Program-made: the position numbers and the translations under genes | In this document: in pieces, positions 37,545-59,385 of the stretch | How positions within the stretch are numbered: position 1 is the first letter of the stretch | How the letters are laid out: the number at the start of each line of letters is the position of its first letter | Source: an uncultured Paracoccaceae bacterium | GTDB lineage: Bacteria; Pseudomonadota; Alphaproteobacteria; Rhodobacterales; Rhodobacteraceae | Assembly: GCA_947499635.1 (NCBI GenBank) | Contig: CANMPD010000018.1 | Span: 1 to 64,000 of the forward strand | Direction of reading: 5' to 3' | DNA: 64,000 nt | The notes under the pieces: generated by a model | Told to the model about the DNA's origin: nothing | The model's database searches: none | The model's input: the letters and a program-made list of their open reading frames with translations, nothing else

Positions 37545-40500
37545 TCATGCCGCTCCATATCCGCCGCCGCCCGGCGATTTCAATACATAGACATCGCCCG
37601 GCTTCATATGCGCCACGTCATTGCCATCCATGGTTTCGATTGTCCCGTCCACGCGTACAACAGAATTTTCACCCATAGCACCGGCAGCCCCGCCAGCCAC
37701 ACCGTGAGGCGCAGTTTTGCGGTGTGATGTAAGGGTTGTCACTGTCATCGGTTCATTAAAGCGTAACTTGCGCACGATGCCGTTGCCGCCGGTGTATTGT
37801 CCAGCACCCCCAGATCCATGTCGGATAGAGAATTCATCGACACGTACTGGGAACCTCGTTTCCAGAACCTCAGGGTCGGTCATGCGTGTGTTGGTCATAT
37901 GGCTATGCACTGCGCTTGCACCATGAAACCCGTCGCCTGCACCGGTTCCGCCACAAATCGTTTCGTAGTTTTGATAAATGTCATTGCCGTAGACGAAATT
38001 GTTCATCGTCCCCTGACTGCCAGCGATGACCCCCAGAGCGCCATAAAGCGTATCTGCGATGGCTTGTGAAACCTCGGTATTGCCCGAAATCACAGCTGCC
38101 GGTTCATCGGGGTTGATCATTGACCCGTTTGGAACCTTCAGATGCAATGGTTTCATGCACCCTTCATTCATTGGAATATTGGATCCAACCAAGGTGCGGA
38201 AGACATAAAGAACAACCGCACGGCAAATCGAAAGCGGGGCATTATAGTTCAGATCGTCTTGTCGCGATGTGCCGGTGAAATCGATCTCGGCAGTGCGCGC
38301 TATTTTGTCGACGGTGATCTTTACCTGTATCTGCGCGCCACTGTCCAATGGGTAGGTGAACTGGCAGTCGTGCAATACATCCAGCACGCGGCGCACGCTT
38401 TCTTCGGCATTGTCCTGTACGTGGCCCATGTAGGCATGCACGACATCTAGTCCAAATTGTTTTGTGATCTTTTGAAGTTCCCGTTCTCCGGTCGCATTGG
38501 CTGCAATCTGTGCGGATAGGTCAGCCATATTTTGATCAACGTTTCGGCACGGGTATTTTGCGGAGGACAAAAGATCACGTGTCTGCTGCTCTTGCAGGAC
38601 CCCTTCTTTTACCAGCCGGAAATTGTCGATCAGCACGCCTTCTTCTTCGATATGACGGCTGTCGGGTGGGGCGGAACCGGGGGTCGTGCCACCAATATCG
38701 GCATGATGCCCGCGCGAGGCGACTGTATAGATGATGTTTTCGCCAGCCTCGTCAAAGACGGGTGTAATCACTGTGACATCCGGTAAGTGCGTGCCGCCAT
38801 TGAACGGGTTGTTCATCATAAACACATCGCCAGGACGAATGTTCCCCGCGTTTTGGCGCAAGATAGACCGAACACTGCCCGACATTGATCCAAGATGGAC
38901 AGGAACATGCGGCGCATTGGCAACCAGATCACCGTGGTGGTCGAAGATCGCGCAGGAAAAATCGAGCCGTTCTTTGATGTTCACCGAATAAGCCGTATTT
39001 GCCAATGTCGCACCCATCTGTTCAGCAATGGACATATACAGGTTGTTGAAAACCTCTAGCATGACAGGGTCAACGGATGTTCCAATGGCCTCGGTGCGTT
39101 CCAGTGGTACGATGCGGCGCAACACAAGGTTCCCACCTTTCACGCATTCGGCCTGCCAGCCGTCCTCGATGATATTTGTGCCGGTTGGCTCGGTTAAAAT
39201 TGCCGGGCCGGATACGGTTTCACCAATCGCGAGGGTTGCACGATTTACCAGTGGCACATCCATCCAAGTGTTCTGAGAATACATGCGTGCCGTCTGCGTT
39301 TTCGCATCCACATGGGCAGTATTCGGGAGAGTTACATTTTCTCCGGTTGACCCAATTGCTTCTGCCGTGAGCAAGTCAATAACGAGGTTTGCATCATGAG
39401 GCACAAATCCAAATCGTGTTTTGTGGGCCGCGTTGAAGCTTTCGGTCATCTGTTGAGGGGTGCTGAAAGGGACGTCCAATGTTTGATGTGCGCCATCTGT
39501 GCGAATATGGGCGGTCACAATCGTCGAAATATCCCCCTCGCTGATCCCCTGCGCCGTCACATCCGCCTGTGCTGCTTCAACGAGGTTACGGATGGCCGTT
39601 TCAGCCTGTGTTATGTCGTTGATCGAGCTGGCAAATTGATGTTCATGAATAGAGCGCACATCCGCAAGCCCCATTCCAAACGCGGACAAGACACCTGCAA
39701 ACGGGTGGATAAAGATGCTTTCCATCCCAAGTGTATCCGCCACAAGACAGGCATGTTGCCCACCTGCACCGCCAAAGCAGTTCATCGTGTATTTGGTCAC
39801 ATCATAACCGCGTTGAACACTGATCTGCTTGATCGCATTGGCCATGTTCTCAACAGCGATCCGCAAAAAGCCTTCGGCAATTTCTTCGACCGATTTTTCG
39901 GTGCCAATGTCTGCTTTGAGGGCCGAGAATTTTTCACGAACCACATCAGCATCGAGTGGTTGGTCTGCATTGGGGCCAAAAACCGACGGGAATTGTGTGG
40001 GTTGGAGTTTGCCAAGCAGGACATTGCAGTCCGTCACCGTTAGGGGACCACCGCGCCGATAGGCGGCAGGACCGGGGTTGGCACCTGCGCTTTCGGGGCC
40101 GACTTGCATGCGTCCGTCACGATAAGACAGGATCGATCCTCCTCCCGCGGCAACGGTGTGAATCGACATCATCGGCGCGCGCATGCGTACGCCCGCGACC
40201 TCTGTTTCAAAGGAACGCTCGTACTCGCCTGCATAGTGGCACACATCTGTAGATGTGCCGCCCATATCAAAACCAATCAGGCGGTCCATTCCCAAATCGG
40301 CTGCTGTGCGCACCATGCCCACAACACCCCCTGCAGGGCCTGACAAAATGGCATCTTTCCCTTGGAAACGCCCCGCATCGGTTAAGCCTCCGTTGGATTG
40401 CATGAACATCAATTTGTCACAGCCACCTTTGTCTGCATTCAAGGCAGATGCGACCTGGTCGATGTAACGACGCAAAATTGGTGACAGGTAGGCATCAACA

Positions 40501-41141
40501 ACTGCAGTGTCCCCACGTGAGACCAGTTTAATCAATGGGCTTGCTTCGTGGCTAAGCGAGACTTGGGTAAATCCAGATTGATGCGCAATGTCCCCTAATC
40601 GCTTTTCGTGATCGGTGTATTTATATCCATGCATCAGTGCGATAGCGACCGATCGGTATCCTTCAGAATAAGCCTGTGAAAGCGCGTCTTGTGCCTTGGT
40701 TGTATCAAGGGGGGTGATGACTGTGCCATCGGATGCGACACGTTCGTCTATTTCGATGACGTTTTCATAGAGCAGTTCTGGGAGTTTAATATCTAATGCA
40801 AACAGGTCAGGGCGGTTTTGGTATCCGATGCGCAGAAGGTCACGCAAACCCTTTGTGATGAGCAAAACCGTGCGTTCGCCTTTGCGTTCCAGCAGCGCAT
40901 TCGTGGCGACAGTGGTGCCCATTTTGACGGCAGCGATCTGACCTGACAAAATTTCAGCATTTGGATCGATGCCTAGAAGAGACTTAATTCCATGAACGGC
41001 GGCATCGGGATAAACTTCTGGATTTTCAGACAAAAGTTTATAGGTCTTGAGCGTCCCATCCGGTTTGCGTGCGACGATGTCTGTAAAGGTGCCCCCACGG
41101 TCAACCCAAAACTGCCACTTACCTTTGCATTTATAATCCAC
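37545..41141 (-). CDS. Fused hydantoinase A/B (5-oxoprolinase-type ATP-dependent amidohydrolase)
   Basis: 1198 residues joining an actin-fold ATPase HyuA half ([51 protein letters not shown]) with a HyuB half from about residue 690 ([10 protein letters not shown]..., [44 protein letters not shown] in parts). The family opens 5-oxoproline or N-substituted hydantoins using ATP; which ring is used here is unknown. The start is a GTG at 41141 with GGAGG 5 nt upstream. It is divergent from a TRAP operon across a 113-bp spacer holding a 21-bp palindrome, implying shared control and a shared substrate. Confidence 0.92.
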
Positions 41142-41183
41142 GTGAACCTCCAAGAATCAATTTTATGTTGCTTTATTTGTATA

Positions 41184-41254: not shown

Positions 41255-42214
41255 ATGAAACACATTCTCTTCGGCACCGCTGCGCTCTTTTGCGCAACAG
41301 CTGCAACTGCACAAGATTGGGATATGCCAACGCCATACGGCGACAGTACGTTCCATACGCAAAACATCGCCCAATTCGCTGACGACGTCCGCACGGCGAC
41401 AGATGGCGCGTTGAACATTACACTTCACTCTGCCGGATCGCTTTTTCCACATGCGGAAATCAAAGGCGCAATTCGCAATCGCTCTGTCCCACTTGGTGAG
41501 TTCTTTTTGTCGCGTTTGTCCAACGAAGACCTGGCGTTTGGTGTCGACAGCCAACCGTTCGTGGCGACATCTTATGAAGATGCCGCGCGCCTTTGGGCCG
41601 CACAAAAGCCAGTCATCACCGAGCTTTTGGCGGAACAAGGTCTGATGCCGTTGTTTTCCGTGCCATGGCCGGCGCAGGGTCTTTATACCAACGGAGAAAT
41701 CGCAACGGTTGATGACCTGAATGGTTTGCGTTTCCGTGCTTACAACGCGGCCCTCGAAGAATTTGCAACACTGGCCGGTGCTGCACCGGTTCAAATCGAA
41801 GCCTCTAACATTCCACAAGCTTTTGCGACTGGTCAGGTCGAAGCGATGATTACGTCCCCCTCAACGGGTGTGAATTCAACCGCTTGGGATTTCGTTACCC
41901 ATTATGCACCGATCAATGCATGGGTTCCAAAGAATATCGTGGTGGTGAACCAGCGCGTGTTTGATCGGTTGGACGCCGATACACAAACCGCTGTTCTTGC
42001 CGCTGCCGAGGTCGCCGAAGCGCGAGGGTGGGACATGTCTGTTGCTGAGGCAGAAAGCATGACAGCTGCGCTCGCGGAGAACGGCATCACAGTTTACGAG
42101 CCAAGCGAGACGTTGATTGACGGTCTACAAGGCATCGGAGCAACCATGCTTGAGACTTGGGAGTCCTCCGCATCTGATAGCGCTCGTAAGGTTCTTGAAG
42201 TTTATAACAACTGA
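41255..42214 (+). CDS. dctP: TRAP transporter substrate-binding protein (second system)
   Basis: 319-residue DctP-family protein with a signal peptide (residues 1-19, cleaved near ATAQD). The DctP signature DDLNGLRFRAYNAALEEF with the ligand arginine, and VEAMITSPSTGVNSTAWDF later, are seen. It differs clearly from the TakP-like protein at 31418, so the ligand differs. It starts an operon with the following small and large permeases, and the divergent oxoprolinase suggests a ring-containing or N-carbamoyl carboxylate ligand (inference). Confidence 0.92.
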   Translation: MKHILFGTAALFCATAATAQDWDMPTPYGDSTFHTQNIAQFADDVRTATDGALNITLHSAGSLFPHAEIKGAIRNRSVPLGEFFLSRLSNEDLAFGVDSQPFVATSYEDAARLWAAQKPVITELLAEQGLMPLFSVPWPAQGLYTNGEIATVDDLNGLRFRAYNAALEEFATLAGAAPVQIEASNIPQAFATGQVEAMITSPSTGVNSTAWDFVTHYAPINAWVPKNIVVVNQRVFDRLDADTQTAVLAAAEVAEARGWDMSVAEAESMTAALAENGITVYEPSETLIDGLQGIGATMLETWESSASDSARKVLEVYNN

Positions 42215-42286
42215 TACCTCCCTGAACTGGCCGGTCGTATGTCAATGCATACTTCCGGCCTCTTTTCATAAAAGAAGGATTGGTTT

Positions 42287-42814
42287 GTGATGTCTTACAT
42301 ACTTCAGAAACTATATGATTTATGCGGTATGATCGCAGGCGGATTGATTTTATGTATCTGCCTTTTGATTTCTGCGCAGATTTGTCTGAATGCTTTTGGG
42401 CGGGTCGCTCCGGGAGTTTTCCCGTCAACAATACCGTCTTACGCTGATTTTTCAGGGTTCATGCTTGCGGGGGCTACGTTTCTTGCGATGGCACATACAT
42501 TGCGTGCAGGAGGCCATATTCGGGTCAATCTTGTCGTGTCTCGTCTGCCCCAAAACGTGCAATTCTTTGCCGAGATCTTTGTACTAGGGGTCGCTATCTG
42601 CCTGATCGGGTATGGCACCTATTTCATGGTCGCATTGGTTGCGGAAAGCCTCCATTACGGCGATGTTTCAAATGGGATTGTTCCGATTTCTCTTTGGATA
42701 CCTCAGAGTGTTGCCGCCTTTGGTATAGCTCTTTTGCTGGTGGCTGTAATTCATACGCTGTTTGAGTTGGTCTCGGCACGTAAACCAATCCTTCCTAGCC
42801 CAGGGGAGGTTTAA
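42287..42814 (+). CDS. dctQ: TRAP transporter small permease
   Basis: 175-residue DctQ of standard size with four membrane helices; the signature AHTLRAGGHIRVNLVVSRLP is present. The frame offers GTG at 42287 and ATG at 42290; AGAAGGA lies 7 or 10 nt upstream, so both are possible. The stop is 2 bp before the DctM start, indicating coupled translation. Confidence 0.9.
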   Translation: MMSYILQKLYDLCGMIAGGLILCICLLISAQICLNAFGRVAPGVFPSTIPSYADFSGFMLAGATFLAMAHTLRAGGHIRVNLVVSRLPQNVQFFAEIFVLGVAICLIGYGTYFMVALVAESLHYGDVSNGIVPISLWIPQSVAAFGIALLLVAVIHTLFELVSARKPILPSPGEV

Positions 42815-42816
42815 CA

Positions 42817-44118
42817 ATGTCTGACCCTCTTATCGGTTTGGTCCTACTTGGACTTCTTATCACCCTTCTGGCAAGTGGTGTTTGGGTTGCCGTGTCACTG
42901 TCTTTGGTTGGCTTAACTGGCCTTGTTTTTTTCTCAAACGCGCCGTCTGGATTAATCTTGGCGTCGACGTTTTGGGGGCACTCTCACAGTTGGGCTTTGA
43001 CCGCTTTACCATTGTTTATCTTGATGGGGGAAATCCTGCTGCGGTCGCGGATGAGCGATGACATGTTTACGGGTCTTGTGCCCTGGCTTAGTCGAGCGCC
43101 GGGACGTTTGTTGCATGTAAATGTGTTTGGTTGCGCAATCTTTGCTGCGGTTTCGGGATCTTCTGCGGCAACGGCTGCAACGATTGGGCGTATGTCCGTG
43201 CCTGAATTGACGAAACGGGGATATCCTGAGAGCCTTATTTTGGGCACTCTGGCGGGGTCCGCAACATTGGGTTTGCTGATCCCTCCGTCCATCATTTTGA
43301 TCGTGTATGGTGTGGCCACAGAGCAATCTATCGCGCGTCTGTTCATTGCCGCAATCATTCCCGGTCTGTTGTTGATGACTTTGTTTGCAAGTTATGTTGC
43401 CGTCCGCGCATGGATGAACCCTGATTTGATACCTGCAATCGACGAGACATTCTCGCTTCGTGAGAAGTTTCGAGCATCGCGCAGGCTGATCCCCGTGGCC
43501 TTGTTGATTGGGGGCGTTATCGGGTCTATCTATGGTGGACTGGCCTCACCGACGGATGCCGCGGCATTGGGCGTTGTGCTGGCCACTATCCTTGCCTGGG
43601 CTTCTGGCGCGTTCAGTTGGAAGTTATTTGGCGAAGCCGTCATGTCTGCGACGCGCACCTCATGTATGATTGCGTTTATCCTACTTGGAGCGGCATTCCT
43701 ATCTGTCTCAATGGGGTTCACCGGGCTCCCTCGGAATCTGGCATCATGGATTTCTGACATGAACCTGTCTGTCGGCGCATTGCTGGTTGCGTTGACGGTT
43801 TTCTTTATCATCCTTGGTTGTTTTCTTGACGGGATTTCAGTCATCGTTCTGACGACATCAATCATTATGCCTATGGTAACAGCTGTCGGGATCGACCCCA
43901 TTTGGTTTGGTATCTATCTGGTGATCGTTGTCGAGATGAGCCAAATTACACCGCCGGTGGGGTTCAACCTGTTTGTTATCCAAGGGTTGACGGGGATCGA
44001 TATTTTAAGGATCGCAAAAGCGGCATTTCCATTTTTCCTGCTGCTTTTGTTTAGTGTCTTATTGATCTGCCTATTCCCGAAAATCGTCACGTTCCTGCCA
44101 ACATATATCGCAAACTAA
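42817..44118 (+). CDS. dctM: TRAP transporter large permease
   Basis: 433 residues, the typical DctM length, with about twelve helices. Motifs: LFILMGEILLRSRMSDDMF, FAAVSGSSAATAATIGRM, AGSATLGLLIPPSIILIVYG, and FLDGISVIVLTTSIIMPM plus the TPPVGFNLFVIQG C-terminal block. GGGGAGG precedes the ATG. The 3' end overlaps the convergent MarR-type regulator by 4 nt and no terminator is visible between them. Confidence 0.94.
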   Translation: MSDPLIGLVLLGLLITLLASGVWVAVSLSLVGLTGLVFFSNAPSGLILASTFWGHSHSWALTALPLFILMGEILLRSRMSDDMFTGLVPWLSRAPGRLLHVNVFGCAIFAAVSGSSAATAATIGRMSVPELTKRGYPESLILGTLAGSATLGLLIPPSIILIVYGVATEQSIARLFIAAIIPGLLLMTLFASYVAVRAWMNPDLIPAIDETFSLREKFRASRRLIPVALLIGGVIGSIYGGLASPTDAAALGVVLATILAWASGAFSWKLFGEAVMSATRTSCMIAFILLGAAFLSVSMGFTGLPRNLASWISDMNLSVGALLVALTVFFIILGCFLDGISVIVLTTSIIMPMVTAVGIDPIWFGIYLVIVVEMSQITPPVGFNLFVIQGLTGIDILRIAKAAFPFFLLLLFSVLLICLFPKIVTFLPTYIAN

Positions 44119-44716: not shown

Positions 44717-45261
44717 TGCGTGATGCTGCCCGCTATCCAGAAACTTTAGTCCAATAGACATCGTAGAATTACAGGGCTTGCCTTTGGAACCTTCGTTCTC
44801 AAAGGCGCGTCGATGTTACAGATCTTATGCGTGGATGAGCAAAATATCATAGATGACGCCCATTTGATGCTGAGGGCATCGGTTTGCGGGTTTTACGACT
44901 CCTAATCGCATTGTCGATGCCGGTACGTGCCATGCACAGGCTGAGTCATCTTAGTTTTTCCCTAAGAAGAAACCAGAAACTTACATCTTTATGAACAATA
45001 CCGTGTTTGTCACATTAAGCTCGCGACATTGGGGAATGCAAAATGGTCGATACCGTGGACCCGTTTGTGCGTGTTGTGAGCATGACGTTTCTCTTTGCGT
45101 CGTGCCTCATAACCGCCCACCTCGTGCGCATTCAGAGGGTTATTGAGATGTAAATTTAATAATTGAAGGTGATGTAGTCCATAATATCGCAGATTCAAGA
45201 GAAATCCAACGTAATTACCGAGACTATCGCCCTGAAACGGCTTGAAGATGGAACAAGAGAA
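44717..45261. other. Long upstream region of the Rieske genes
   Basis: About 545 bp with no conserved gene. It contains only one small ORF with a ribosome site (45043-45153, listed separately). The low-quality open frame on the opposite strand at 45010-45513 is the antisense of the Rieske gene start. Otherwise I see nothing. Confidence 0.5.
45043..45153 (+). CDS. Possible small membrane peptide (36 aa)
   Basis: An ORF of 36 residues beginning MVDTVDPFVRVVSMTFLFAS with one hydrophobic segment, preceded by GGGGA 7 nt before the ATG. No family is known and it could be chance. It ends about 110 bp before the first Rieske gene and could be a leader peptide or junk. Confidence 0.25.
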   Translation: MVDTVDPFVRVVSMTFLFASCLITAHLVRIQRVIEM

Positions 45262-46428
45262 ATGAATACAACCGAGCAAGCGCAAAGCTCTATCAACGCT
45301 CTTCGTGATAACGTATCTACTGCGTTTGAAGAAGCGCGTGCGATGCCGCCAGCTGTCTACACGTCTGAAGCCTTTCACGACGCAGAATTGGAAAAGGTAT
45401 TCAAAAAGTCGTGGTTTTGTGTTGGGCGCGCCAGTGCTTTGGCCAAACCGGGCGATTACGTAACATGCGAATTGGCGGGGCAGCCGATCATCGTATTGCG
45501 TGATAAAGATCATGTGTTACGCGCCTTTTCGAATGTCTGCCGCCATCGCATGTCGACTTTGCTGCAGGGCAGAGGTAACGCCAGAACCATTGTCTGCCCC
45601 TATCACGCATGGACCTATAATCTCGATGGTAGCCTGCGCGGGGCACCCGCGATGAAGGGCAACAAAGCCTTCTGCAAGGATCATTACAGCCTGCCTGACA
45701 TTGCTTGCGAGGATTGGCTTGGTTGGGTTTTCATCACCCTCAACCCGGATGCGCAGCCTGTCGCCGAAGAACTGAGCGAGGTCGAGGAGCTTATCGCGGG
45801 CTATGATATGACCCGCTATACTGAAACCTTCTTTGAAGAGCATGTGTGGGACACCAATTGGAAGGTGTTGGCCGAGAATTTCATGGAAAGCTACCATTTG
45901 CCGGTTTGTCATGCTGCAACGATCGGCGGGCTGTCCAAACTGAACGACATGATCTGCCCGCCTGGCCGTAAAGCGTTCAATTACCACACCATCCTTAAGG
46001 ATGAATCTTTGCGCATTGCTATGGCGCACCCGACCAACGACCGTCTGCATGGTGACGCGCGCCGGACCACATTTTTGCTTGCGATTTATCCTAGTCTGAT
46101 GATCACTTTGACGCCTGGCTATTTCTGGTATCTGAGCTTGCACCCGAAAGGGCCCGGGCACGTGCAAATCCGTTTTGGCGGTGGCATGTCAGACGATTAT
46201 AAAGATGATGCGGACGCCCAGCAGCATCTCATCGATCTCAAAACCCTGCTGGATGAGGTCAACGTCGAAGATCGCGGCTGTACTGAGAAGGTTTATCGCG
46301 GGTTATCTGCCGATGGGGCCGTGCCGGGGCATCTTTCCCATTTGGAACGCCCGAACTTCGATTTTGCGCAATATCTGATGAGCCAAATGGATACATCCTT
46401 CCAACCGGTTATTGGAGAGGCGATTTAA
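45262..46428 (+). CDS. Rieske non-heme iron oxygenase, alpha subunit (1 of 2)
   Basis: 388 residues. N-terminal Rieske 2Fe-2S site: CRHRM near residue 93 and CPYHAW about 20 residues later (Cys-X-His ... Cys-X2-His). C-terminal catalytic domain with NFMESYHLPVCHA carrying two iron-binding histidines. Such enzymes hydroxylate aromatic rings or demethylate/oxidise N-methyl compounds, with electrons from a reductase. No reductase or ferredoxin gene is adjacent. The stop is 2 bp before the second Rieske gene. Confidence 0.93.
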   Translation: MNTTEQAQSSINALRDNVSTAFEEARAMPPAVYTSEAFHDAELEKVFKKSWFCVGRASALAKPGDYVTCELAGQPIIVLRDKDHVLRAFSNVCRHRMSTLLQGRGNARTIVCPYHAWTYNLDGSLRGAPAMKGNKAFCKDHYSLPDIACEDWLGWVFITLNPDAQPVAEELSEVEELIAGYDMTRYTETFFEEHVWDTNWKVLAENFMESYHLPVCHAATIGGLSKLNDMICPPGRKAFNYHTILKDESLRIAMAHPTNDRLHGDARRTTFLLAIYPSLMITLTPGYFWYLSLHPKGPGHVQIRFGGGMSDDYKDDADAQQHLIDLKTLLDEVNVEDRGCTEKVYRGLSADGAVPGHLSHLERPNFDFAQYLMSQMDTSFQPVIGEAI

Positions 46429-49269: not shown

Positions 49270-49281
49270 TGGGTGTCATCC

Positions 49282-50583
49282 TCATGTGTTTGGTTCGCGC
49301 AGGTCTTGGCGTTTCAGCCATGCCAGATAAGTGGGCGCGACGCGGCGTACTATGTTGTGGAGTGGAAAGGGCTGCGGGTCGCTTATCGGCAAGGCAAGCT
49401 CATCCATGTTGGTGCCTGCGGCTGCACGGCCTAATTCGCGACCAAGGGCTGTCCCCAATGCGACACCGCGTCCATTGCAGCCAACCCATGCCCAGCCGTT
49501 TTCGCCAAGACTGTGTACGCGAGGAAAGCGGTCCCAATTCATCCCGATATACCCTGACCACACGTGGGTCATCTCTGGGACACCAAGATCGGGGAAAGCT
49601 TCGCCTAAGTTACGCGCTGCTTTGGCGCGGACGCGTTCTAAAACTTTAAAGTTCCCCATAACTGCGCCTCCGGTGATCAGACGATTTCTTGCATCGTACC
49701 GAAAAAATCGCAAATCACCACGTGTGTCGGATACGGCTTGGCGGCCGGGCAGAATTTTGCGGCGCAGATCATCCTCCAAAGGTGGCGTTGCCATTTGCCA
49801 ACTCAGCACAGGCACGACGGATTTTGCTATTTTAGGAGCCAGAGAGGCGGTCTGCTCGCCCGTATAAGCATTGGTCGCGAGGATGAGTGCACGGGCCTTG
49901 AGGGTGCCGGAATCCGTTTTGACAACCCAATGGGCACCTTCACGAGTATAGCTGATAACGGGCGAGTCCTCGCATATTTTAGCGCCTAATCCTTCGGCGG
50001 CCTTTGCCATACCACGTGCAAGTGCCAAAGGGTTCACATGCCCGCCTGTAGGGTTATACATCCCCCCAAACCAAAAATTGGTCCCCAGCAAATCGCGACA
50101 CTCTTCAGCCGTTTTCAATTCAGCAGGAAAGCCGTAACGTTGCCATGTCTCAACCCGCTTTTGAGAGAGCGCAATACGGCCGGGGCTGTGCGCAGGTTGG
50201 AACCAGCCGGATTGTTCGGCCTCGGCTTCTATGTTGAATTCACGTACCAGATCAAAGACGGTATTAGCAGAGTTGCCGATCAGCTGCACCATCCGTTCCC
50301 CTGCGGCACCGTATCGCTTGATCCACGCGTCAGGTTCGGCAGAGGTCAGAATCGGGATTACTTGACCGTTGTTACGTCCTGATGCGCCCCAACCTACGGT
50401 TTTGCCCTCTAGTACAGTAACCGACCGACCGTCGCGTGCGGCTTCGATTGCGGCGGAGAGGCCTGTAAAACCTGCGCCGATGATTGCCACGTCGGTTTCC
50501 TGCGTGCCTTCTAGGCGGGCGGACTGAACGCGCGCAGGCGCAGTGTCCGCCCAAAGAGATGCCATGAAGGCGGTTTGCATCAT
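49282..50583 (-). CDS. FAD-dependent amine/amino-acid oxidoreductase (DAO superfamily)
   Basis: 433-residue flavoprotein. The dinucleotide-binding motif DVAIIGAGFTGLSAAIEAARDG is near residue 31, followed by GRNNGQ, and the C-terminal FAD contacts include WSGYIGMNWDRFPRVH and GCNGRGVALGT. It resembles gamma-glutamylputrescine oxidase (PuuB/OrdL) and D-amino-acid dehydrogenases. The ATG at 50583 overlaps the stop of the class V enzyme (ATGA), so translation is coupled. Substrate is probably a secondary or primary amine. Confidence 0.9.
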   Translation of the reverse strand: MMQTAFMASLWADTAPARVQSARLEGTQETDVAIIGAGFTGLSAAIEAARDGRSVTVLEGKTVGWGASGRNNGQVIPILTSAEPDAWIKRYGAAGERMVQLIGNSANTVFDLVREFNIEAEAEQSGWFQPAHSPGRIALSQKRVETWQRYGFPAELKTAEECRDLLGTNFWFGGMYNPTGGHVNPLALARGMAKAAEGLGAKICEDSPVISYTREGAHWVVKTDSGTLKARALILATNAYTGEQTASLAPKIAKSVVPVLSWQMATPPLEDDLRRKILPGRQAVSDTRGDLRFFRYDARNRLITGGAVMGNFKVLERVRAKAARNLGEAFPDLGVPEMTHVWSGYIGMNWDRFPRVHSLGENGWAWVGCNGRGVALGTALGRELGRAAAGTNMDELALPISDPQPFPLHNIVRRVAPTYLAWLKRQDLREPNT

Positions 50584-52220
50584 GCGGATTGTTCCATCTC
50601 GATCGGAGCGACGGGTGTGGTTTCCTGAGGCAGCCAAAACCACCGCAGCTCTTCTTCTTCGGGGTTCATTGCAATGTTGTCGGGGCAGGGCTGTGTGTTG
50701 GCGGCATCTGCCAGAATGCGCGCTTCTGTCAGACAGGTTTCAAACGACGGCGCTGAGGCTGTGTCTTGCGCCTGTGTTGTTGTCCAAAGTTCGCTCAGAG
50801 ATAATGGGCCGCTATCATCCACATCCCGGTTGGCTCGCCATACACCCCCATCAAGATCGAGGCGATAATATGTTAATATGTCAAGGCCGCGCTCTGCGAT
50901 GAAAGCAATGGCTGCAGCGATGTGATCAACATCTTGGTCATTAAAGAACCAGTTTACGCCAAGCCGCGCCCAACCGGGACGGAACGTAGAATGGCCGAGA
51001 TCAACAGCCCGTTCGTGTCGCAATGTCGTTGCTTCGTCAATGTCCAGCAAGGCGTGACCATATGGGCCGGCACAAGAACATCCGCCGCGGGCTTGAATTC
51101 CGAAGAGATCATTTAATACGGCCACGACGAAATTGTGATGTAACAGTTTGCCTCTGATACGGATGTTGAAGGAAAATACGCCAAGCCGACCTGTAATGTC
51201 GGGTCCCAGTAATTCTACCCCTGGGATTGCGCGTAGGGCCGAATTCATCTTTTCGGTCATTTGTTCTTCGCGGCGTTCGACCTCGACTTCGTCCATGTCG
51301 GCCTTCAGTTGAAGAACCATTCCAGCTCTGATGTTTTCTACAATAGAAGGGGTGCCGGCTTCTTCGCGGCGTTCAGGATTAGAAACGTAATTATGCCCGG
51401 TCGCGGTGACATAGGATACGGTGCCACCGCCCGTGGTCGTGGGGCGTGTGGTATCTAGCATCCAGCGGTCCGCGACAAGTACGCCAGAGGCTCCGGGGCC
51501 GCCCGCATATTTATGCGGCGACAGAAAGGCTGCATCAATACGATCGTCCGCAGATGCAGATGTGGCGGCAAGCCGAATAGGGAGATAGGGCGCAGCAGCC
51601 GCAAAATCTGCCACGCACCAGCCTTTATACGCGTGCATCAGCTTTGCAATTGCGCGTAGGTCTGTGCGTATGCCTGTCACGTTAGATGCGGCAGAGAAGG
51701 CTCCGATTTTCAGGGGCGCATCGGCGTGGTTTGCAAGTTCGTTCTCGAGAGTTTCCAAGCAGATCTGGCCTGCATCTGTCAGAGGAATGCGCACAACTTT
51801 TGCGGCACTTTCCCGCCAAACTAGATCATTTGAGTGGTGCTCGTAAGGGCCCACAAAGACAACAGCTTCGTTGTTCAGAGATTGAAGTGACAAAGCGCGG
51901 ACAAGCTTATCCGCAGCCCCTGTCGCGCCGGAACCTGCGAAAATGACGGCATGATTTTCATCGGCGTGCAGTGCTTTGCGCACTGTTTCGCGTGCGAGTT
52001 CACGAAGCTGGGTTGAACGCCGTCCTGTAAAGGAGGTTTCTGTGTGCGTGTTGCCATAATAGGGCAACACATGGGTACGAATGGCATCTTCAATAAATTT
52101 AAGGGATCTGCCGGATGCGACATAATCTGCATAAAGAATAGCGCGCGGTCCAAAGGGGCCGGGTATGGTATTGCCTTCACCGATAATTGCGCTGCGGATC
52201 GAATTGAACTTGGTCGACAT
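50580..52220 (-). CDS. Class V PLP-dependent enzyme (cysteine desulfurase-like fold)
   Basis: 546 residues, longer than SufS/NifS (about 400). The N-terminal part follows class V aminotransferases: TSFTGRRST, GSGATGAADKLVRAL, and the PLP-lysine motif AAFLSPHKYAGGPGASGVLV. The C-terminal ~100 residues are extra and unassigned. Members include cysteine desulfurases, selenocysteine lyases and isopenicillin-N epimerases; a lyase acting on a cysteine derivative would fit the neighbouring thiazoline hydrolase (inference). AAGGAA precedes the ATG. Confidence 0.88.
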   Translation of the reverse strand: MSTKFNSIRSAIIGEGNTIPGPFGPRAILYADYVASGRSLKFIEDAIRTHVLPYYGNTHTETSFTGRRSTQLRELARETVRKALHADENHAVIFAGSGATGAADKLVRALSLQSLNNEAVVFVGPYEHHSNDLVWRESAAKVVRIPLTDAGQICLETLENELANHADAPLKIGAFSAASNVTGIRTDLRAIAKLMHAYKGWCVADFAAAAPYLPIRLAATSASADDRIDAAFLSPHKYAGGPGASGVLVADRWMLDTTRPTTTGGGTVSYVTATGHNYVSNPERREEAGTPSIVENIRAGMVLQLKADMDEVEVERREEQMTEKMNSALRAIPGVELLGPDITGRLGVFSFNIRIRGKLLHHNFVVAVLNDLFGIQARGGCSCAGPYGHALLDIDEATTLRHERAVDLGHSTFRPGWARLGVNWFFNDQDVDHIAAAIAFIAERGLDILTYYRLDLDGGVWRANRDVDDSGPLSLSELWTTTQAQDTASAPSFETCLTEARILADAANTQPCPDNIAMNPEEEELRWFWLPQETTPVAPIEMEQSA

Positions 52221-52229
52221 TTGATTTCC

Positions 52230-53876
52230 TTAAGCCGCATCTATTTTTCGAACAGGCGGGGTCCATGACCGCCCTGGGATCGAAGACAGAAGGTTTTTTG
52301 TGTAAGGGTGTTGGGGGGCGGCAAAAACGTCTGCGGTAAAACCGCTTTCCACAATCTCGCCTCTTTGCATGACGATAATACGGTCACACAGTTGTGCTGC
52401 GACGCGCAAATCATGCGTGACGAACAGCAGGGATAGGTTCATTCGGTCACGTAAGTCCGCCAGCAGTTTGAGCACCTGCGCCTGCACACTCACATCAAGC
52501 GCTGAAACGGGCTCATCGGCGACAATCACTTTGGGTTCCATTGCCAAGGCGCGAGCGATCCCGATGCGCTGCCGTTGACCGCCCGAGAATTCATGCGGAA
52601 AGCGGTTCGCGGCGGCAGGCGACAGTTCTACCAATTCCAAAAGATCCCGAGCACGGGCACGGGCCTTTTCAGGGTCTTCGCCATGTACAATCGGGCCTTG
52701 GGCAATGATATCAACCACACGCTTGCGCGGGTTAAGCGAGGCCATTGGATCTTGGAACACCATCTGAATGTGTTTGCGCATGGCGCGCAATTCGGGTGGG
52801 GTGCAGGCCAATAGATCCGTGTCGTCCACTTCTACCGCACCTGAGTCTGCATCCAACAGGCGCGTGACCAATCTGGAAACGGTGGTTTTGCCCGAACCAG
52901 ATTCCCCAACTACGCCCAATGTTTCACCTTGATGTAATTGAAAGCTGAGGTCTTTTACCGCTGCAACAGCTTTGCGTTTGCCGCTGAGCAGACCACCACG
53001 GGCGGTAAAGGTCTTTTTTAAACCCGTGCCCTTGAGTACGACAGGCAGCGACGTAAGAGGCTTTGGTGCGGGGGGCTGCAAGTCTGGAACCGATGCAATC
53101 AAGGCTTGAGTATAGGGATGGTTTGGGGTGTTCAGCACCTGATCCGCTGAACCTTGTTCGACCACTTCGCCTTTACGCAGCACGATGACGTGATCTGCGA
53201 TCTCGGCGACCACACCAAAATCATGCGTGATGAATAAAACACCAGCGCCGTCTTTTTGTTGTAGCTCACGAATGAGTTTTAAAATTTGCAACTGCGTTGT
53301 GACGTCCAGTGCCGTCGTGGGTTCATCGGCAATGACCAGTTTTGGTGACAGCGACAGCGCCATCGCAATCATAACCCTTTGACGTTGACCGCCTGAAATT
53401 TGGTGGGGGTAGGCGTTATAGGCGGACTCTGGATCAGGAATATGGACCTGACCAAGCATCTCGATTGCACGCTCGTAACGTTCTTTACGCGATGCATTAA
53501 GGTGAAGCTTGAGCACTTCGTCCATTTGCCACCCGACCGTCTTTTGAGGATTCAGCGCGGTCATGGGTTCTTGAAAGATCATTGAAATGCGATTGCCGCG
53601 TAGCGCGCGCATTTCATTTTCAGTTTTTGAGAGGATGTCTTCGCCCTCAAAAGTGATGCTTCCGTCGGCCACGCTGACATGGGGCTCGGGTAGTAAGCGC
53701 ATAATCGCGCCTGCAGACAAAGACTTGCCCGAGCCAGACTCGCCAACCATACAAACAATTTCACCGGGTCGAACCGTCAAATTAAGCCCCTGTAATGCAA
53801 ACGGCCGGTCAGCGCCTTTTGGGAGCGAAATTTTGAGGTCTTTGATCTCGAGGATTGGTGCTGTTTGGGTATTCAT
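52230..53876 (-). CDS. Peptide-type ABC transporter, fused double ATPase
   Basis: 548 residues containing two complete ABC domains in one chain, corresponding to DppD and DppF. Two Walker A motifs (GESGSGKS near residue 45; GESGSGKT near 330) and two signature motifs (SGGQRQR) are visible. The fusion resembles YejF and glutathione importer GsiA. Its ATG overlaps the upstream permease stop by 4 nt. Confidence 0.93.
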   Translation of the reverse strand: MNTQTAPILEIKDLKISLPKGADRPFALQGLNLTVRPGEIVCMVGESGSGKSLSAGAIMRLLPEPHVSVADGSITFEGEDILSKTENEMRALRGNRISMIFQEPMTALNPQKTVGWQMDEVLKLHLNASRKERYERAIEMLGQVHIPDPESAYNAYPHQISGGQRQRVMIAMALSLSPKLVIADEPTTALDVTTQLQILKLIRELQQKDGAGVLFITHDFGVVAEIADHVIVLRKGEVVEQGSADQVLNTPNHPYTQALIASVPDLQPPAPKPLTSLPVVLKGTGLKKTFTARGGLLSGKRKAVAAVKDLSFQLHQGETLGVVGESGSGKTTVSRLVTRLLDADSGAVEVDDTDLLACTPPELRAMRKHIQMVFQDPMASLNPRKRVVDIIAQGPIVHGEDPEKARARARDLLELVELSPAAANRFPHEFSGGQRQRIGIARALAMEPKVIVADEPVSALDVSVQAQVLKLLADLRDRMNLSLLFVTHDLRVAAQLCDRIIVMQRGEIVESGFTADVFAAPQHPYTKNLLSSIPGRSWTPPVRKIDAA

Positions 53877-54748
53877 TGTTTCTGCCTCGGGTTCATTGCA
53901 TCGTTCAGGCCTTCACCTAAAAGAGAAAAGGACAGGACGGTCAGGACAATTGCGATACCTGGAATGGCTGAGCAGTACCAAGCCGTGCGCAGCACAGCGC
54001 GGCCTTGGCCAATCATATTGCCCCAGCTGGCATAGTTGGGATCGCCGAGACCTAGGAAAGCCAATGCACTTTCCAACAAGATTGCCATCGCCATGATAAC
54101 AGAGGCATAGACGATGATCGGGGGCAGGGCGTTGGGGAGGATTTCTTTGAATATCAGTGCGCTATTTGAGACGCCCAAGTTTCGGGCGGCATCCACAAAC
54201 TCACGATTGCGCAGGGACATAAACTCGGCCCGTACCATACGGGCAGGGGCGGTCCAGCTGACAATGCCAATCGCAAAGGTGATCCATTCGATCTTTGATC
54301 CTAGAATGGCGACCAGTGTGAGCAGCAGCACAAAGTTGGGGATCGTCTGAAAGGCTTCGGTGATGCGCATGAGTAGGTCATCAACCCAACCGCCAAAGTA
54401 TCCAGAAATCGCGCCGATCACGATACCGATCAGTATCGAAATCAACGTCGCGACCACACCAACCAAAAGAGAAATTCGCGCCCCGTAAAACAGTTGGGAC
54501 AAAATGTTACGGCCTAGTTGGTCAGTGCCCAACGGGATCGATGCATCGATAAAGGGTGCGGTCAAGGGTGGGCCCGCGCGGCGTAGCGGATCACCGGAGT
54601 CAACGATGCCAGCAATGGCGGCCATGAGAATGACAAGCGTGAACAAAATGAGGCCGAGGAGAGCCGCGCGGTTGCGACGATAACGACGCCAAAACATTAC
54701 ATAGCGCGGGGGTTCTGCTGGGCGCAGGTCGGTGTCAAGGACGGTCAT
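53873..54748 (-). CDS. Peptide-type ABC transporter permease (DppC-like)
   Basis: 291-residue inner-membrane permease with six helices. The EAA-type motif contacting the ATPase is visible at about residue 190 (EFVDAARNLGVSNSALIFKEILPNALPPIIV). The N-terminal OppC_N helix is present. It overlaps both neighbours by 4 nt (ATGA), a tightly coupled operon. Confidence 0.93.
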   Translation of the reverse strand: MTVLDTDLRPAEPPRYVMFWRRYRRNRAALLGLILFTLVILMAAIAGIVDSGDPLRRAGPPLTAPFIDASIPLGTDQLGRNILSQLFYGARISLLVGVVATLISILIGIVIGAISGYFGGWVDDLLMRITEAFQTIPNFVLLLTLVAILGSKIEWITFAIGIVSWTAPARMVRAEFMSLRNREFVDAARNLGVSNSALIFKEILPNALPPIIVYASVIMAMAILLESALAFLGLGDPNYASWGNMIGQGRAVLRTAWYCSAIPGIAIVLTVLSFSLLGEGLNDAMNPRQKQ

Positions 54749-55734
54749 GTGAGCTCGATCCGGCTGTCGAGACGTGCGTAAAGCAGGTCTGTTAGAAAAT
54801 TAACGAGAATAACGATAATGGAACATAGAAAGATAATGCCCATAAGCGTGTTCATGTCGCGTTGAATGACCGACTGGTAGGCAAGCTGCCCCAGTCCAGG
54901 CAAAGTGAAGATGGTTTCCACCACCACCGAACCGCCAAGCAACGCAGAGAATTGTAGGCCAAATAAAGTCACCGCAGGCAGGAGGGCGTTTCGCATGATG
55001 TGATGCACCATCAGGCGTGTTTCTCCGGCGCCTTTGGCGCGGGCGGTGCGCACGAAATCCTGATCTGCGACCTGTATGACCGAGGAGCGCATCAACCGCA
55101 GATAAAAGGACAAGTAAATCAGCGAAAGCGCAGCCGTAGGCATTACCAAATGGCGCGCAACGTCAACCACGTGATCCCAACCTGTATAAAAGCCCGCGAT
55201 TGTTTTTATGCCGCCAACAGGAAGCCAACCCAATTTCACAGAAAACAATAGCATCATCATTAGTGATAAGAAAAAGCTAGGCGTCGCATAGAAAATCAGG
55301 CCCAGGGTCGAGATCAGATTATCGGTCAGCGAATAGGCGCGACGTGCCGCAAAAGCGCCAAGCACGATACCGATAGAAAATGCAAGACTAAGAGACGTTG
55401 CCATCAAAAGCAAAGTGGTGCCCAAACGGTCAAGCAATACTGTGGTCACCGGTTGTTCATAGACAAATGACTGACCCAGATCGAAGGTTGCCAGCTTCGC
55501 CATATAGCGCCAAAGCTGGACCCATATCGGCTGATCCAGTCCATATTCGGCACGCAATCGCGCAATGAAGGCTGCGTCCGCGCCTCCCATGTCACCAACA
55601 AGCGCATCGACAGTGTCTCCGGGTGCAAGTTTCAGTAACAAAAAGGTGCCTATCATAATCAATATGATCACCGGTATCGCCTGAAAAAGGCGTCTCAGTG
55701 CATAGATGGCAATCGGGGGGATGTTCAGATTCAT
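54745..55734 (-). CDS. Peptide-type ABC transporter permease (DppB-like)
   Basis: 329-residue permease: N-terminal helix (AIPVIILIMIGTFLLLKLAPGD, shared by DppB) and the EAA loop DFVRTARAKGAGETRLMVHHIMRNALLPAVT. It pairs with the DppC-like protein to form the channel. A short hairpin (55783-55800) lies between its gene and that of the binding protein upstream. Confidence 0.93.
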   Translation of the reverse strand: MNLNIPPIAIYALRRLFQAIPVIILIMIGTFLLLKLAPGDTVDALVGDMGGADAAFIARLRAEYGLDQPIWVQLWRYMAKLATFDLGQSFVYEQPVTTVLLDRLGTTLLLMATSLSLAFSIGIVLGAFAARRAYSLTDNLISTLGLIFYATPSFFLSLMMMLLFSVKLGWLPVGGIKTIAGFYTGWDHVVDVARHLVMPTAALSLIYLSFYLRLMRSSVIQVADQDFVRTARAKGAGETRLMVHHIMRNALLPAVTLFGLQFSALLGGSVVVETIFTLPGLGQLAYQSVIQRDMNTLMGIIFLCSIIVILVNFLTDLLYARLDSRIELT

Positions 55735-55782
55735 CTGAGGTACTCGCGGTAAACTTAAAGCGCTTCAAGAGGCGTAGTCGGA

Positions 55783-55800
55783 AGGGCCATCACTGGCCCT
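55783..55800 (-). terminator. Intercistronic hairpin after the ABC binding-protein gene
   Basis: AGGGCCA/TGGCCCT, 7 bp with a TCAC loop, 15 bp beyond the binding-protein stop. As with dctP it could reduce read-through or stabilise the binding-protein mRNA. Confidence 0.6.
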
Positions 55801-55814
55801 CCGGTCTTTGTAAC

Positions 55815-58018: not shown

Positions 58019-58879
58019 ATGTCTCATCCCGTAAAAGGCGTGGATCATTGCTTTGTTTTGGTTGATGACCTTGAGAGATCAGCTGAACAATACCGGGCAC
58101 TTGGCTTTACCCTCGCGCCCCTTGGTCTGCATTCAAAGGCCAAAGGGTCGGCCAATTATACCATCATGTTTCCGGACGATTATTTTGAACTGCTTGGCCT
58201 GTTACAGCCCACACCTTTGAACGAGGCACTCCGCGCAGCACTTACCGATAGTGGACAGGGTCTGCATGCCATCGCATGTCGGATTGGTACGGCAGAAGAT
58301 GCGGCCAAAGCGCTGACCGAACTGGAGATCGCTACACATGGTCTTGGCAGTTTTGAGCGGCCTGTTGACCTGCCAAATGGGGGCAAAGGTGTTGCTGCAT
58401 TTTCGACGCTATCTTTCGACAAGAGCGAAGTGCCGATGGGATCGGTCTTTATGTGTCAGCACAAAACACCTGAAACTGTGTGGCTGCCGGAATTGCTGAC
58501 ACATGCCAATACTGCTTGCGGTTTGGATGCGATACTCATTGTTACAGATAAACCAAACGAAGATGCCAAACGCTATGCACGGCTATGGGCGGAGGGAGAG
58601 GTTGTGCCTTCTACTGAGGGCTACACTGTACACACAGGGAGCAATTCAGCGCCTTTAAAGCTCATCACGGCTGAACAAATGTCTGCTTGTTATCCTGATA
58701 TGGATTTGTCCCATGCTCCAACAGGGGTGTTTTCTGGGTTGCAAATCAAGGTTAAGGACCTGGATGCGGCCACACGCTGCCTGGAGAATGCAGACACCCC
58801 GTCCATTAAGACCGAGCGCGGCCTGGCTGTTGCCCCGCAATATGCCTCTGGCGTGGTTTTGGAGTTTGTATCTGCATGA
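58019..58879 (+). CDS. VOC-superfamily (glyoxalase-like) protein
   Basis: 286 residues with two VOC/bleomycin-resistance-fold modules: GVDHCFVLVDDLERSAEQYRALGF at the start and a second part near residue 145. A glyoxalase_3-like or isomerase/dioxygenase role is possible, but not all metal ligands are clear. GGAG lies 8 nt before the ATG. Its stop overlaps the Lrp gene start (ATGA), so the two form an operon. Confidence 0.85.
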   Translation: MSHPVKGVDHCFVLVDDLERSAEQYRALGFTLAPLGLHSKAKGSANYTIMFPDDYFELLGLLQPTPLNEALRAALTDSGQGLHAIACRIGTAEDAAKALTELEIATHGLGSFERPVDLPNGGKGVAAFSTLSFDKSEVPMGSVFMCQHKTPETVWLPELLTHANTACGLDAILIVTDKPNEDAKRYARLWAEGEVVPSTEGYTVHTGSNSAPLKLITAEQMSACYPDMDLSHAPTGVFSGLQIKVKDLDAATRCLENADTPSIKTERGLAVAPQYASGVVLEFVSA

Positions 58880-59385
58880 GCGAGAAAATTCGAAAAACGG
58901 GCAGCAAGTCGATTGATAAAATTACCTTTGATGACATCGATCAGAAGATATTAGACATCTTGCAAAAAGATTCTGATACAGTTGTAAACACCATTTCCGA
59001 GGCGGTTGGATTGTCGGTCACCCCTTGCTGGCGGCGGATCAAGCGGATGGAAGAGGCGGGGCTCATCATGAAGCGGGTTGTTCTGGTGGATCAGGCCCGT
59101 GCGAATGTCTCGTTGACAGTTTTTGTCGGCGTGACAGCCTCCCGCCATGAGATCGGATGGCTGGAAAAATTCTGTGCGCTGATTGATGAGATACCTGAAG
59201 TTGTGGAGGCATATCGCCTGACAGGCACTGTCGATTATATTCTGAAAGTTGTTGTTCCTGATATGGCGGCCTATGATCAAGTATATAAACTCATGATCGA
59301 AAAGCTAGACTTTAGTCAGGTCAATTCGATGATCTCTATGGAAGAATTGAAGTTCACAACGGCTATCCCGACCAAATATTTGTAG
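58876..59385 (+). CDS. Lrp/AsnC-family transcriptional regulator
   Basis: 169 residues: N-terminal helix-turn-helix (DQKILDILQKDSDTVVNTISEAVGLSVTPCWRRIKRMEEAGLI in segments) and a C-terminal RAM (ligand-binding) domain (VVEAYRLTGTVDYILKVVV). Lrp-type proteins bind amino acids, which fits control of the divergent peptide-type ABC operon and its amino-acid enzymes. Cotranscribed with the VOC gene by 4-nt overlap. Confidence 0.93.
   Translation: MSEKIRKTGSKSIDKITFDDIDQKILDILQKDSDTVVNTISEAVGLSVTPCWRRIKRMEEAGLIMKRVVLVDQARANVSLTVFVGVTASRHEIGWLEKFCALIDEIPEVVEAYRLTGTVDYILKVVVPDMAAYDQVYKLMIEKLDFSQVNSMISMEELKFTTAIPTKYL

What the first reader, a model, noticed from the sequence alone, without database searches (positions are those of the whole stretch)
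37545..59385. Candidate uncharacterised catabolic island for a cyclic, possibly sulfur-containing compound
One region joins an oxoprolinase/hydantoinase, two importers (TRAP and GsiA-like ABC), two Rieske oxygenases, a class V PLP lyase-type enzyme, an amine oxidoreductase, an ATC-hydrolase family protein and three regulators. ATC hydrolase makes S-carbamoyl-cysteine, 5-oxoprolinase belongs to glutathione turnover, and class V enzymes can desulfurate cysteine, so breakdown of thiazoline, thiazolidine or glutathione-derived compounds is a coherent guess.
Basis: inference. Interest (0 to 1): 0.75.

Follow-up and report, generated by a model that had tools for sequence, protein, structure and literature searches.

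The report
Cysteine-recovery operon beside two unrelated modules
The 'island' is three unrelated gene sets lying side by side; one of them looks like part of a widely shared, apparently undescribed bacterial pathway that imports a ring-shaped cysteine derivative and takes it apart to cysteine and sulfide.

Summary
In relatives the stretch falls into three units: (M1) fused hydantoinase/oxoprolinase + TRAP importer + MarR; (M2) two Rieske oxygenases + LysR, here with a decayed flavoprotein remnant in front; (M3) an operon of dipeptide-type ABC importer, class V PLP enzyme, FAD amine oxidase and ATC-hydrolase-family protein, with divergent glyoxalase-like and Lrp genes. The M3 importer accompanies 66 of the 80 examined relatives of its ATC-hydrolase protein, the oxidase 76 of 80; M1 and M2 genes are absent there save one HyuAB/MarR pair. 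In 71 of 80 an M20 amidohydrolase gene follows directly (lost in the window). Of 66 importer-type loci, 27 have class V, 9 an L-cysteine-desulfhydrase-like gene, none both, 30 neither. Best reading: the oxidase turns an imported thiazolidine-4-carboxylate (cysteine-carbonyl adduct) into a thiazoline, the ATC-hydrolase protein opens it to N-acyl-cysteine, M20 frees cysteine, and a PLP enzyme removes the sulfur. The substrate is inferred; no assay was possible.

The parts
37545..41153 (-). M1: fused hydantoinase/oxoprolinase (HyuA-HyuB)
   Evidence: PF02538 646 bits, PF01968 375 bits; conserved next to TRAP + MarR in some relatives
41255..44118 (+). M1: TRAP importer, P (41255-42214), Q (42287-42814), M (42817-44118)
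   Evidence: PF03480, PF04290, PF06808
44115..44636 (-). M1: MarR-type regulator
   Evidence: HTH_27 66 bits; with HyuAB and TRAP in 6 of 20 fetched HyuAB loci
45087..45242 (+). M2: remnant of the flavoprotein gene that precedes Rieske1 in many relatives
   Evidence: two short tblastn matches (residues 191-205 and about 396-418 of the relatives' protein; E down to 1.7e-5) directly before Rieske1; no match to these proteins at E<=1e-3 in the whole-window search
45262..46428 (+). M2: Rieske oxygenase alpha subunit 1
   Evidence: PF00355 + PF00848; 55 of 198 family genomes, own included, have a homologue at E<=1e-80
46431..47528 (+). M2: Rieske oxygenase alpha subunit 2
   Evidence: PF00848 + PF00355; 60% or more identical homologue near Rieske1 in 8 of 20 fetched loci
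47677..48576 (+). M2: LysR regulator
   Evidence: PF03466 + PF00126; 49-80% homologue near Rieske1 in 11 of 20 fetched loci
48760..49269 (-). M3: ATC-hydrolase-family protein (PF14196), proposed thiazoline ring opener
   Evidence: 116.7 bits; C109, C129, C158 invariant in 51 sequences; AF2 model mean pLDDT 92.2
49282..50643 (-). M3: FAD amine oxidase (DAO); the listed start is GTG, a likelier start is an ATG near 50580-50583 that overlaps the class V stop
   Evidence: PF01266 213 bits; translation; orthologues mostly 430-439 aa by a nearest-start rule
50580..52220 (-). M3: class V PLP enzyme, cysteine-desulfurase-like
   Evidence: PF00266 160.6 bits; aligned with SufS structures; K237, C381, C383, R419 in 54 of 54 sequences
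52230..53876 (-). M3: double ATPase of the dipeptide-type ABC importer
   Evidence: PF00005 x2
53873..54748 (-). M3: ABC permease C
   Evidence: PF00528 + OppC_N
54745..55734 (-). M3: ABC permease B
   Evidence: PF00528 + PF19300
55815..57404 (-). M3: periplasmic binding protein, SBP_bac_5
   Evidence: PF00496 264.8 bits
58019..58879 (+). M3: Glyoxalase_3 (VOC) protein, divergent from the operon
   Evidence: PF13468 100 bits; in 64 of 80 related loci
58876..59385 (+). M3: Lrp/AsnC regulator
   Evidence: PF01037 + HTH_24; orthologues 77-80% in the same place in G128, G137, G138, not found in G048

Best explanation
The finding covers three independent units. The one of interest, M3 (48760-59385), is a copy of a conserved alphaproteobacterial operon that takes up a cyclic cysteine derivative, most likely a thiazolidine-4-carboxylate (cysteine condensed with an aldehyde or keto acid), and recovers cysteine from it. 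Proposed steps: (1) SBP5-type ABC importer; (2) the pipecolate-oxidase-like FAD enzyme oxidises the ring C-N bond to a 2-thiazoline; (3) the ATC-hydrolase-family protein cleaves the thiazoline C-S bond by hydrolysis, giving an N-acyl-cysteine; (4) an M20 amidohydrolase removes the acyl group (gene directly downstream in most of the relatives examined; lost here, where only homologues of 54% identity or less were found); (5) a PLP enzyme, here SufS-like class V and elsewhere Cds1-like, takes the sulfur off cysteine. Lrp presumably regulates. Shown by sequence: module limits, gene order, families, the alternation of two cysteine-type PLP enzymes. Predicted: the fold of ATCh. Inferred: the substrate and each reaction.
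For: Operon conserved: SBP5/permB/permC/ATPase in 66 of 80, DAO 76 of 80, M20 71 of 80, Glx3 64 of 80, HyuAB 1, MarR 1, Rieske 0, TRAP 0 (the best 80 of 497 relatives). ATCh and M20 matches lie 6-60 bp apart in all 71. In the 66 SBP5 loci class V occurs in 27, the Cds1-like gene in 9, both in 0, neither in 30. Cds1-like protein: 561.7 bits against NF052478 'L-cysteine desulfhydrase Cds1', cut-off 600. M20: nearest solved sequence YxeP 1ysj, E 1.5e-80; YxeP deacetylates N-acetylcysteine (PMC9706529, abstract and passages). Class V: aligns with SufS, C383 on the SufS cysteine and K237 on the PLP lysine, both in 54 of 54 sequences. DAO: best NCBIfam hit is L-pipecolate oxidase, a ring-amine oxidase, though below cut-off. 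PF14196: said to cleave the C-S bond of the thiazoline ring (PMC5847659, passage). Bacteria are said to turn thiazolidine-4-carboxylate into N-formylcysteine (PMC9814826, passage).
Against: No substrate test was possible. 30 of 66 SBP5 loci carry neither PLP enzyme, so step 5 is not obligatory. The window and G048 lack the M20 gene next to ATCh. 11 loci use a LIV-type importer and carry a second PF14196 protein, which the scheme does not explain. DAO is far below the AmaA cut-off (262.9 against 600 bits), class V below SufS (146.8 against 475.1), Cds1-like just below its own. Two of the 80 loci (L204, L219) have the PF14196 gene with none of the partners, so it also works elsewhere. The ATCh fold resembles sensor and binding proteins. 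The Glyoxalase_3 protein has no clear role. The mutual exclusion of class V and Cds1 (P 0.006 if loci were independent) is confounded by phylogeny. M20 scores nearly as well with the ectoine enzyme DoeB2 model (325.4 bits, cut-off 550) as with the general amidohydrolase model.
Confidence: 0.5

Rival explanations
1. M3 degrades a sulfur-free cyclic or N-alkyl amino compound (pipecolate-, ectoine- or opine-like). DAO makes a cyclic imine, the PF14196 protein hydrolyses a C=N bond, M20 deacylates a product such as an N-acetyl-diamino acid, and the class V enzyme is an aminotransferase or lyase of another amino acid.
For: DAO's best family is L-pipecolate oxidase. M20 also scores 325 bits with the ectoine enzyme DoeB2. 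SBP_bac_5 importers carry many kinds of solute (family knowledge). 30 of 66 SBP5 loci have neither cysteine-type PLP enzyme.
Against: Two different cysteine-type PLP enzymes alternate in the operon; the SufS cysteine is invariant; the only enzyme activity that I saw stated for PF14196 is on a thiazoline.
Confidence: 0.25
2. The PF14196 protein is not an enzyme here but a ligand-binding (sensor or carrier) protein, so the pathway is oxidase + deacylase + PLP enzyme on an acyclic N-acyl or N-alkyl cysteine.
For: Its AF2 model matches sensor and binding folds: phenol sensors MopR/PoxR, Bet3, H-NOX.
Against: Its gene is tightly packed between DAO and M20 in most loci, it has 19 invariant residues including three Cys in 51 sequences, and the family contains a purified ATC hydrolase (reference 46 of PMC5847659, seen only as a citation).
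Confidence: 0.12
3. The whole stretch 37545-59385 is one catabolic island for a cyclic sulfur compound.
For: The three units are contiguous in this genome.
Against: All three occur separately in relatives; M2 and M3 have both lost an edge gene that relatives have; none of 17 congeners has the ATCh gene at E<=1e-20 and only 1 has Rieske1.
Confidence: 0.03

Closest known systems
DL-2-amino-thiazoline-4-carboxylate (ATC) to L-cysteine pathway of Pseudomonas (ATC hydrolase, then carbamoyl-cysteine amidohydrolase; review PMC10821248, passages)
   Same: A PF14196 protein followed by an amidohydrolase, predicted to end in cysteine that is then desulfurated
   Different: Here an FAD oxidase precedes it, the amidohydrolase is of the M20 aminoacylase type (TIGR01891), there is an ABC importer and an Lrp gene, and no racemase gene is seen in the operon
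yxe operon of Bacillus subtilis (S-(2-succino)cysteine breakdown; PMC9706529, abstract and passages)
   Same: Importer plus oxidative enzyme plus M20-type N-acetylcysteine deacetylase, ending in cysteine
   Different: No acetyltransferase or FMN monooxygenase here; oxidation by a DAO-type FAD enzyme and a PF14196 step instead
Thiazolidine-4-carboxylate (thioproline) oxidation by proline dehydrogenase (citation only) or ProC (PMC12899673, abstract and passages) in E. coli
   Same: The same proposed first chemistry: ring oxidation; N-formylcysteine named as the product in bacteria
   Different: There it is an activity of proline enzymes; here a dedicated oxidase, hydrolase and importer are proposed
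Ectoine degradation (DoeA/DoeB)
   Same: Hydrolytic opening of a cyclic amidine, then deacylation (recalled analogy)
   Different: The ring-opening hydrolase family is unrelated (recalled); M20 scores below the DoeB2 cut-off

Membership tests
ATC hydrolase (PF14196) | Pfam score above the gathering cut-off | tested here: met
   116.7 against 28.1 bits
ATC hydrolase (PF14196) | Cluster of three conserved Cys, V4R/HNOB-like fold (as described in PMC5847659, passage seen) | tested here: met
   C109, C129, C158 invariant in 51 sequences; Foldseek top hits Bet3, MopR, PoxR on a predicted model
ATC hydrolase (PF14196) | Hydrolysis of L-ATC to a carbamoyl-cysteine | not testable with these tools
   needs enzyme assay
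L-pipecolate oxidase AmaA (NF050086) | Score above the curated cut-off | tested here: not met
   262.9 against 600 bits
SufS cysteine desulfurase (TIGR01979) | Score above the curated cut-off | tested here: not met
   146.8 against 475.1 bits
Cysteine desulfurase type mechanism | PLP lysine and nucleophilic cysteine at the SufS positions (their roles are recalled) | tested here: met
   alignment; K237 and C383 in 54 of 54 sequences
L-cysteine desulfhydrase Cds1 (NF052478; gene of relatives, not in the window) | Score above the curated cut-off | tested here: not met
   561.7 against 600 bits
M20 amidohydrolase (TIGR01891; gene of relatives, not next to ATCh in the window) | Score above the curated cut-off | tested here: met
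   341.1 against 153.75 bits
Glutathione importer GsiABCD | NCBIfam GsiA, GsiB, GsiC and GsiD cut-offs | tested here: not met
   GsiA 544.8 against 1077, GsiB 125.3 against 594, GsiC 211.6 against 463, GsiD 200.0 against 484
Caprolactamase / acetophenone carboxylase (M1 HyuAB) | NCBIfam cut-offs | tested here: not met
   best 346.8 against 1000

The most novel reading that the evidence does not exclude
A dedicated pathway, widespread in marine and soil alphaproteobacteria, that imports thiazolidine-4-carboxylates (cysteine-aldehyde or cysteine-keto-acid adducts) and salvages cysteine, sulfur and nitrogen from them through oxidase, PF14196 thiazoline hydrolase and N-acylcysteine deacylase. It would give PF14196 a natural metabolic role, where the activity known to me was found with the industrial substrate ATC, and would show that cysteine locked up by carbonyls is a nutrient.
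Probability: 0.35. Interest if true: 0.8.

Novelty: new variant of a known kind. Interest (0 to 1): 0.58.

Why it matters
If right, formaldehyde- or aldehyde-trapped cysteine is a nutrient with its own importer and enzymes in many roseobacters and rhizobia. A family of proteins now named after an industrial reaction would gain a natural pathway. The prediction needs only a growth assay and three enzyme assays. If wrong, the operon is still a strongly conserved unit of unknown substrate for which I found no description in the ten paper searches made.

Tried and rejected
One-island reading: rejected. Glutathione/oxoproline turnover: HyuAB is not linked to M3 (1 of 80 loci) and all four Gsi models fail their cut-offs. 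Window M20 as a diverged remnant: no match at E<=0.05 in the 500 bp around the ATCh end. M20 gene elsewhere in the own genome: the best of three matches is 54% identical, on contig 3; G128, which has the operon M20, also has such homologues (49-56%), so it is not likely to be the moved operon gene. Genes after M20 in the 30 SBP5 loci without a PLP enzyme: clustered, nine proteins of seven loci named: GGDEF, amidohydrolase, HAD hydrolase, LysR, Bmp binding protein, RTX repeat, TPP enzyme, acyl-CoA dehydrogenase, amidase. None is a cysteine enzyme; most are unrelated flanks, but in L209 and L212 a gene (named HAD hydrolase in L212) starts within about 50 bp of the M20 end and could belong to the operon there. 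PF14196 proteins outside the DAO group in the family: mixed neighbours (homocysteine methyltransferase, GcvT-type oxidases, Asp/Glu racemase family and others), no single theme. The 39-46% class V relatives often lie beside an Lrp gene but not in this operon. Promoter and terminator scan: fewer matches than in shuffles, uninformative. PDB by sequence for ATCh: nothing significant (best E 0.3).

My gene caller used a codon-composition score and called some frames wrongly (for example in L117 and L032); counts were taken from tblastn maps, except the c1 count in M2, which rests on the caller. Searches (40% identity or more; stricter thresholds) differ slightly: DAO 77 and 76, Lrp 20 and 17.
Full report
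OBSERVATION. Between 37545 and 59385 lie a fused hydantoinase/oxoprolinase, a TRAP importer, a MarR regulator, two Rieske oxygenases, a LysR regulator, a PF14196 (ATC hydrolase) protein, a DAO-type FAD enzyme, a class V PLP enzyme, a dipeptide-type ABC system, a Glyoxalase_3 protein and an Lrp regulator. The genome is a 3.6 Mb assembly of 50 contigs; the window is part of the 66,801-base contig 18.

ONE ISLAND OR SEVERAL. I searched 198 genomes of the family (drawn evenly, own included). Close class V homologues (63-75%) are in 4 others; Rieske1 homologues (E<=1e-80) in 55 and HyuAB homologues (E<=1e-250) in 74, own included. By my comparison of the lists, 17 genomes besides the own have both Rieske1 and HyuAB: 15 on different contigs and 2 (G034, G101) on one contig more than 1 Mb apart; some of these assemblies are fragmented. 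Of the four other genomes with the class V-bearing operon, one (G137) has Rieske1 and one (G048) has HyuAB, each on another contig. Fetched flanks of these four (about 20 kb on each side, but only 5.1 kb on one side of G048) show SBP5-permB-permC-ATPase-class V-DAO-ATCh and the divergent Glx3 gene, with Lrp next in three of four. M1 and M2 queries give there only matches of 23-32% identity.

M1 AND M2 STAND ALONE ELSEWHERE. Of 20 HyuAB loci fetched, 6 carry the same TRAP M (58-95%) and MarR (45-92%) genes; others have a different TRAP system (matches of 25-39%) or none; none carries Rieske, DAO or ATCh matches. Of three congener loci, all carry the TRAP genes and two MarR. Of 20 Rieske1 loci fetched, 8 have Rieske2 (60% or more), 11 a LysR homologue (49-80%), none HyuAB, DAO or ATCh. 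By my gene of these 20 also have a flavoprotein gene (c1; Pyr_redox_3). In the window that gene is reduced to two short remnants at about 45087-45131 and 45171-45242, right before Rieske1. The nearest homologue in the own genome is 58% identical, on another contig.

POSITION IN THE GENOME. Five congener regions are collinear with the window from where the fetched stretch starts (14.5-17.5 kb) up to 36.0 kb, and the arginyltransferase gene (36228-37043) is in the opposite orientation there. In the same five congeners the 19 kb or so on the far side of that gene has no nucleotide match to the window beyond the gene itself, and none of the queried module proteins. At the thresholds used, ATCh is in none of the 17 other genomes of the genus, Rieske1 in 1, HyuAB in 5. 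So the right half of the window looks like accessory DNA in which three modules have come together; an IS1182-type transposase gene lies at 61998-63398.

THE OPERON M3. A scan of the species-level genome collection with an alignment of 11 ATCh proteins gave 497 confirmed relatives, of which the best 80 were kept with up to 10 kb on each side. I examined these 80 of 497. At the thresholds: SBP5, permB, permC and ATPase in 66 each; DAO in 76; M20 in 71; Glx3 in 64; class V in 36; Lrp in 17 (a lower bound, since it often lies beyond the flank held); a LIV-type importer in 11 (family assigned on L202), and the same 11 carry a second, divergent PF14196 protein; HyuAB 1 and MarR 1 (both in L200); Rieske1, Rieske2, TRAP and LysR 0. 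The ATCh-to-M20 distance between matches is 6-60 bp in all 71; the DAO-to-ATCh distance is 128 bp or less in 71 of 76. By their titles the hosts are mostly Rhodobacterales and Hyphomicrobiales (orders recalled). The M20 gene directly follows ATCh in G128, G137, G138 and G101 but not in the window or G048. G101 has the operon without class V between ATPase and DAO.

THE END OF THE PATHWAY. An Agrobacterium plasmid locus shows, as annotated by its depositors, Lrp, VOC, SBP, two permeases, ATPase, FAD oxidoreductase, ATC hydrolase, M20 aminoacylase, then a PLP-dependent cysteine synthase family protein. That last protein scores 561.7 bits with the NCBIfam model of L-cysteine desulfhydrase Cds1 (cut-off 600). 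It occurs in 9 of the 66 SBP5 loci, class V in 27, both in none, neither in 30. Chance of no overlap is 0.006 if loci were independent, which they are not: class V sits mainly in Rhodobacterales, Cds1-like mainly in Hyphomicrobiales. Still, two unrelated PLP enzymes of cysteine type in the same operon point to cysteine as an intermediate. Where neither is present, the nine genes after M20 that I named include no cysteine enzyme.

ENZYMES. Class V aligns with SufS structures; K237 and C383 fall on the PLP lysine and the catalytic cysteine (alignment; the roles are recalled) and are in 54 of 54 sequences. M20 is nearest to YxeP (1ysj, E 1.5e-80), then a plant IAA-amino-acid hydrolase homologue and N-alpha-acyl-glutamine aminoacylase; YxeP deacetylates N-acetylcysteine (PMC9706529, abstract and passages). 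DAO is nearest to L-pipecolate oxidase among NCBIfam models but far below its cut-off, and only distantly like sarcosine and glycine oxidases of known structure. ATCh: AF2 model with mean pLDDT 92.2; best structural matches are Bet3, the phenol sensors MopR and PoxR, and H-NOX, at TM-scores near 0.5-0.6 for the first two groups. This relation of PF14196 to V4R and HNOB, the shared three-Cys cluster and C-S cleavage of the thiazoline ring are already in print (PMC5847659, passage). I find three invariant cysteines, C109, C129 and C158, in 51 sequences.

MECHANISM. Oxidation of a thiazolidine-4-carboxylate next to nitrogen gives a 2-thiazoline; hydrolysis at the C-S bond gives an N-acyl-cysteine; an aminoacylase gives cysteine; a desulfurase or desulfhydrase gives sulfur plus alanine or pyruvate. 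The gene content fits this order. Bacteria are reported to convert thiazolidine-4-carboxylate to N-formylcysteine (PMC9814826, passage), and E. coli ProC oxidises thioproline (PMC12899673, abstract and passages); no dedicated operon is named in the passages I saw. The substrate class is an inference. I put this scheme at 0.5, a sulfur-free cyclic amine at 0.25, and a binding role for ATCh at 0.12.

LITERATURE. Ten searches in the open-licence PMC library listed no paper that, by its title, the start of its abstract or the passages opened, describes this operon; subscription papers are mostly not held, and one paper on the Pseudomonas ATC genes was not available. Of the papers cited I saw abstracts or passages only, never the whole text.

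VERDICT. The operon is a new variant of a known kind (an ATC-to-cysteine-like route with an oxidase in front and its own importer), unproven.

Noticed in passing
window 45087-45242: Remnant of a flavoprotein gene (two short stretches) directly before Rieske1; in many relatives the whole gene stands there. A sign that the M1/M2 join is a deletion or recombination scar.
   Followed up: yes
window 36000-37043: Synteny with five congeners ends here; the arginyltransferase gene is inverted relative to them.
   Followed up: yes
window 61998-63398: IS1182-family transposase gene (410.8 bits against a cut-off of 270) at the far edge of the accessory stretch.
   Followed up: no
window 60180-60917: 245-aa ORF without Pfam or NCBIfam match at E<=0.001.
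   Followed up: no
L196, L198, L200, L202, L203, L205, L207, L235, L241, L243, L249: Variant operon with a LIV-type importer and a second, divergent PF14196 protein (for example L202 2663-3325); found in 11 of 11 LIV loci and 0 of 66 SBP5 loci.
   Followed up: partly
L007-L031: A 39-46% class V relative, in 47 of 198 family genomes, has an Lrp homologue beside it (within the 1.5 kb held) in 21 of 25 loci: perhaps an amino-acid-responsive desulfurase unit.
   Followed up: partly
L126, L127: Another PF14196 subgroup sits near homocysteine methyltransferase genes and, in L126, oxidase-GcvT fusions in roseobacters.
   Followed up: no
window 1-201: Two tRNA genes at the window start, the second a tRNA-Asp at 125-201.
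   Followed up: no
[quoted passage not shown]
   Followed up: no
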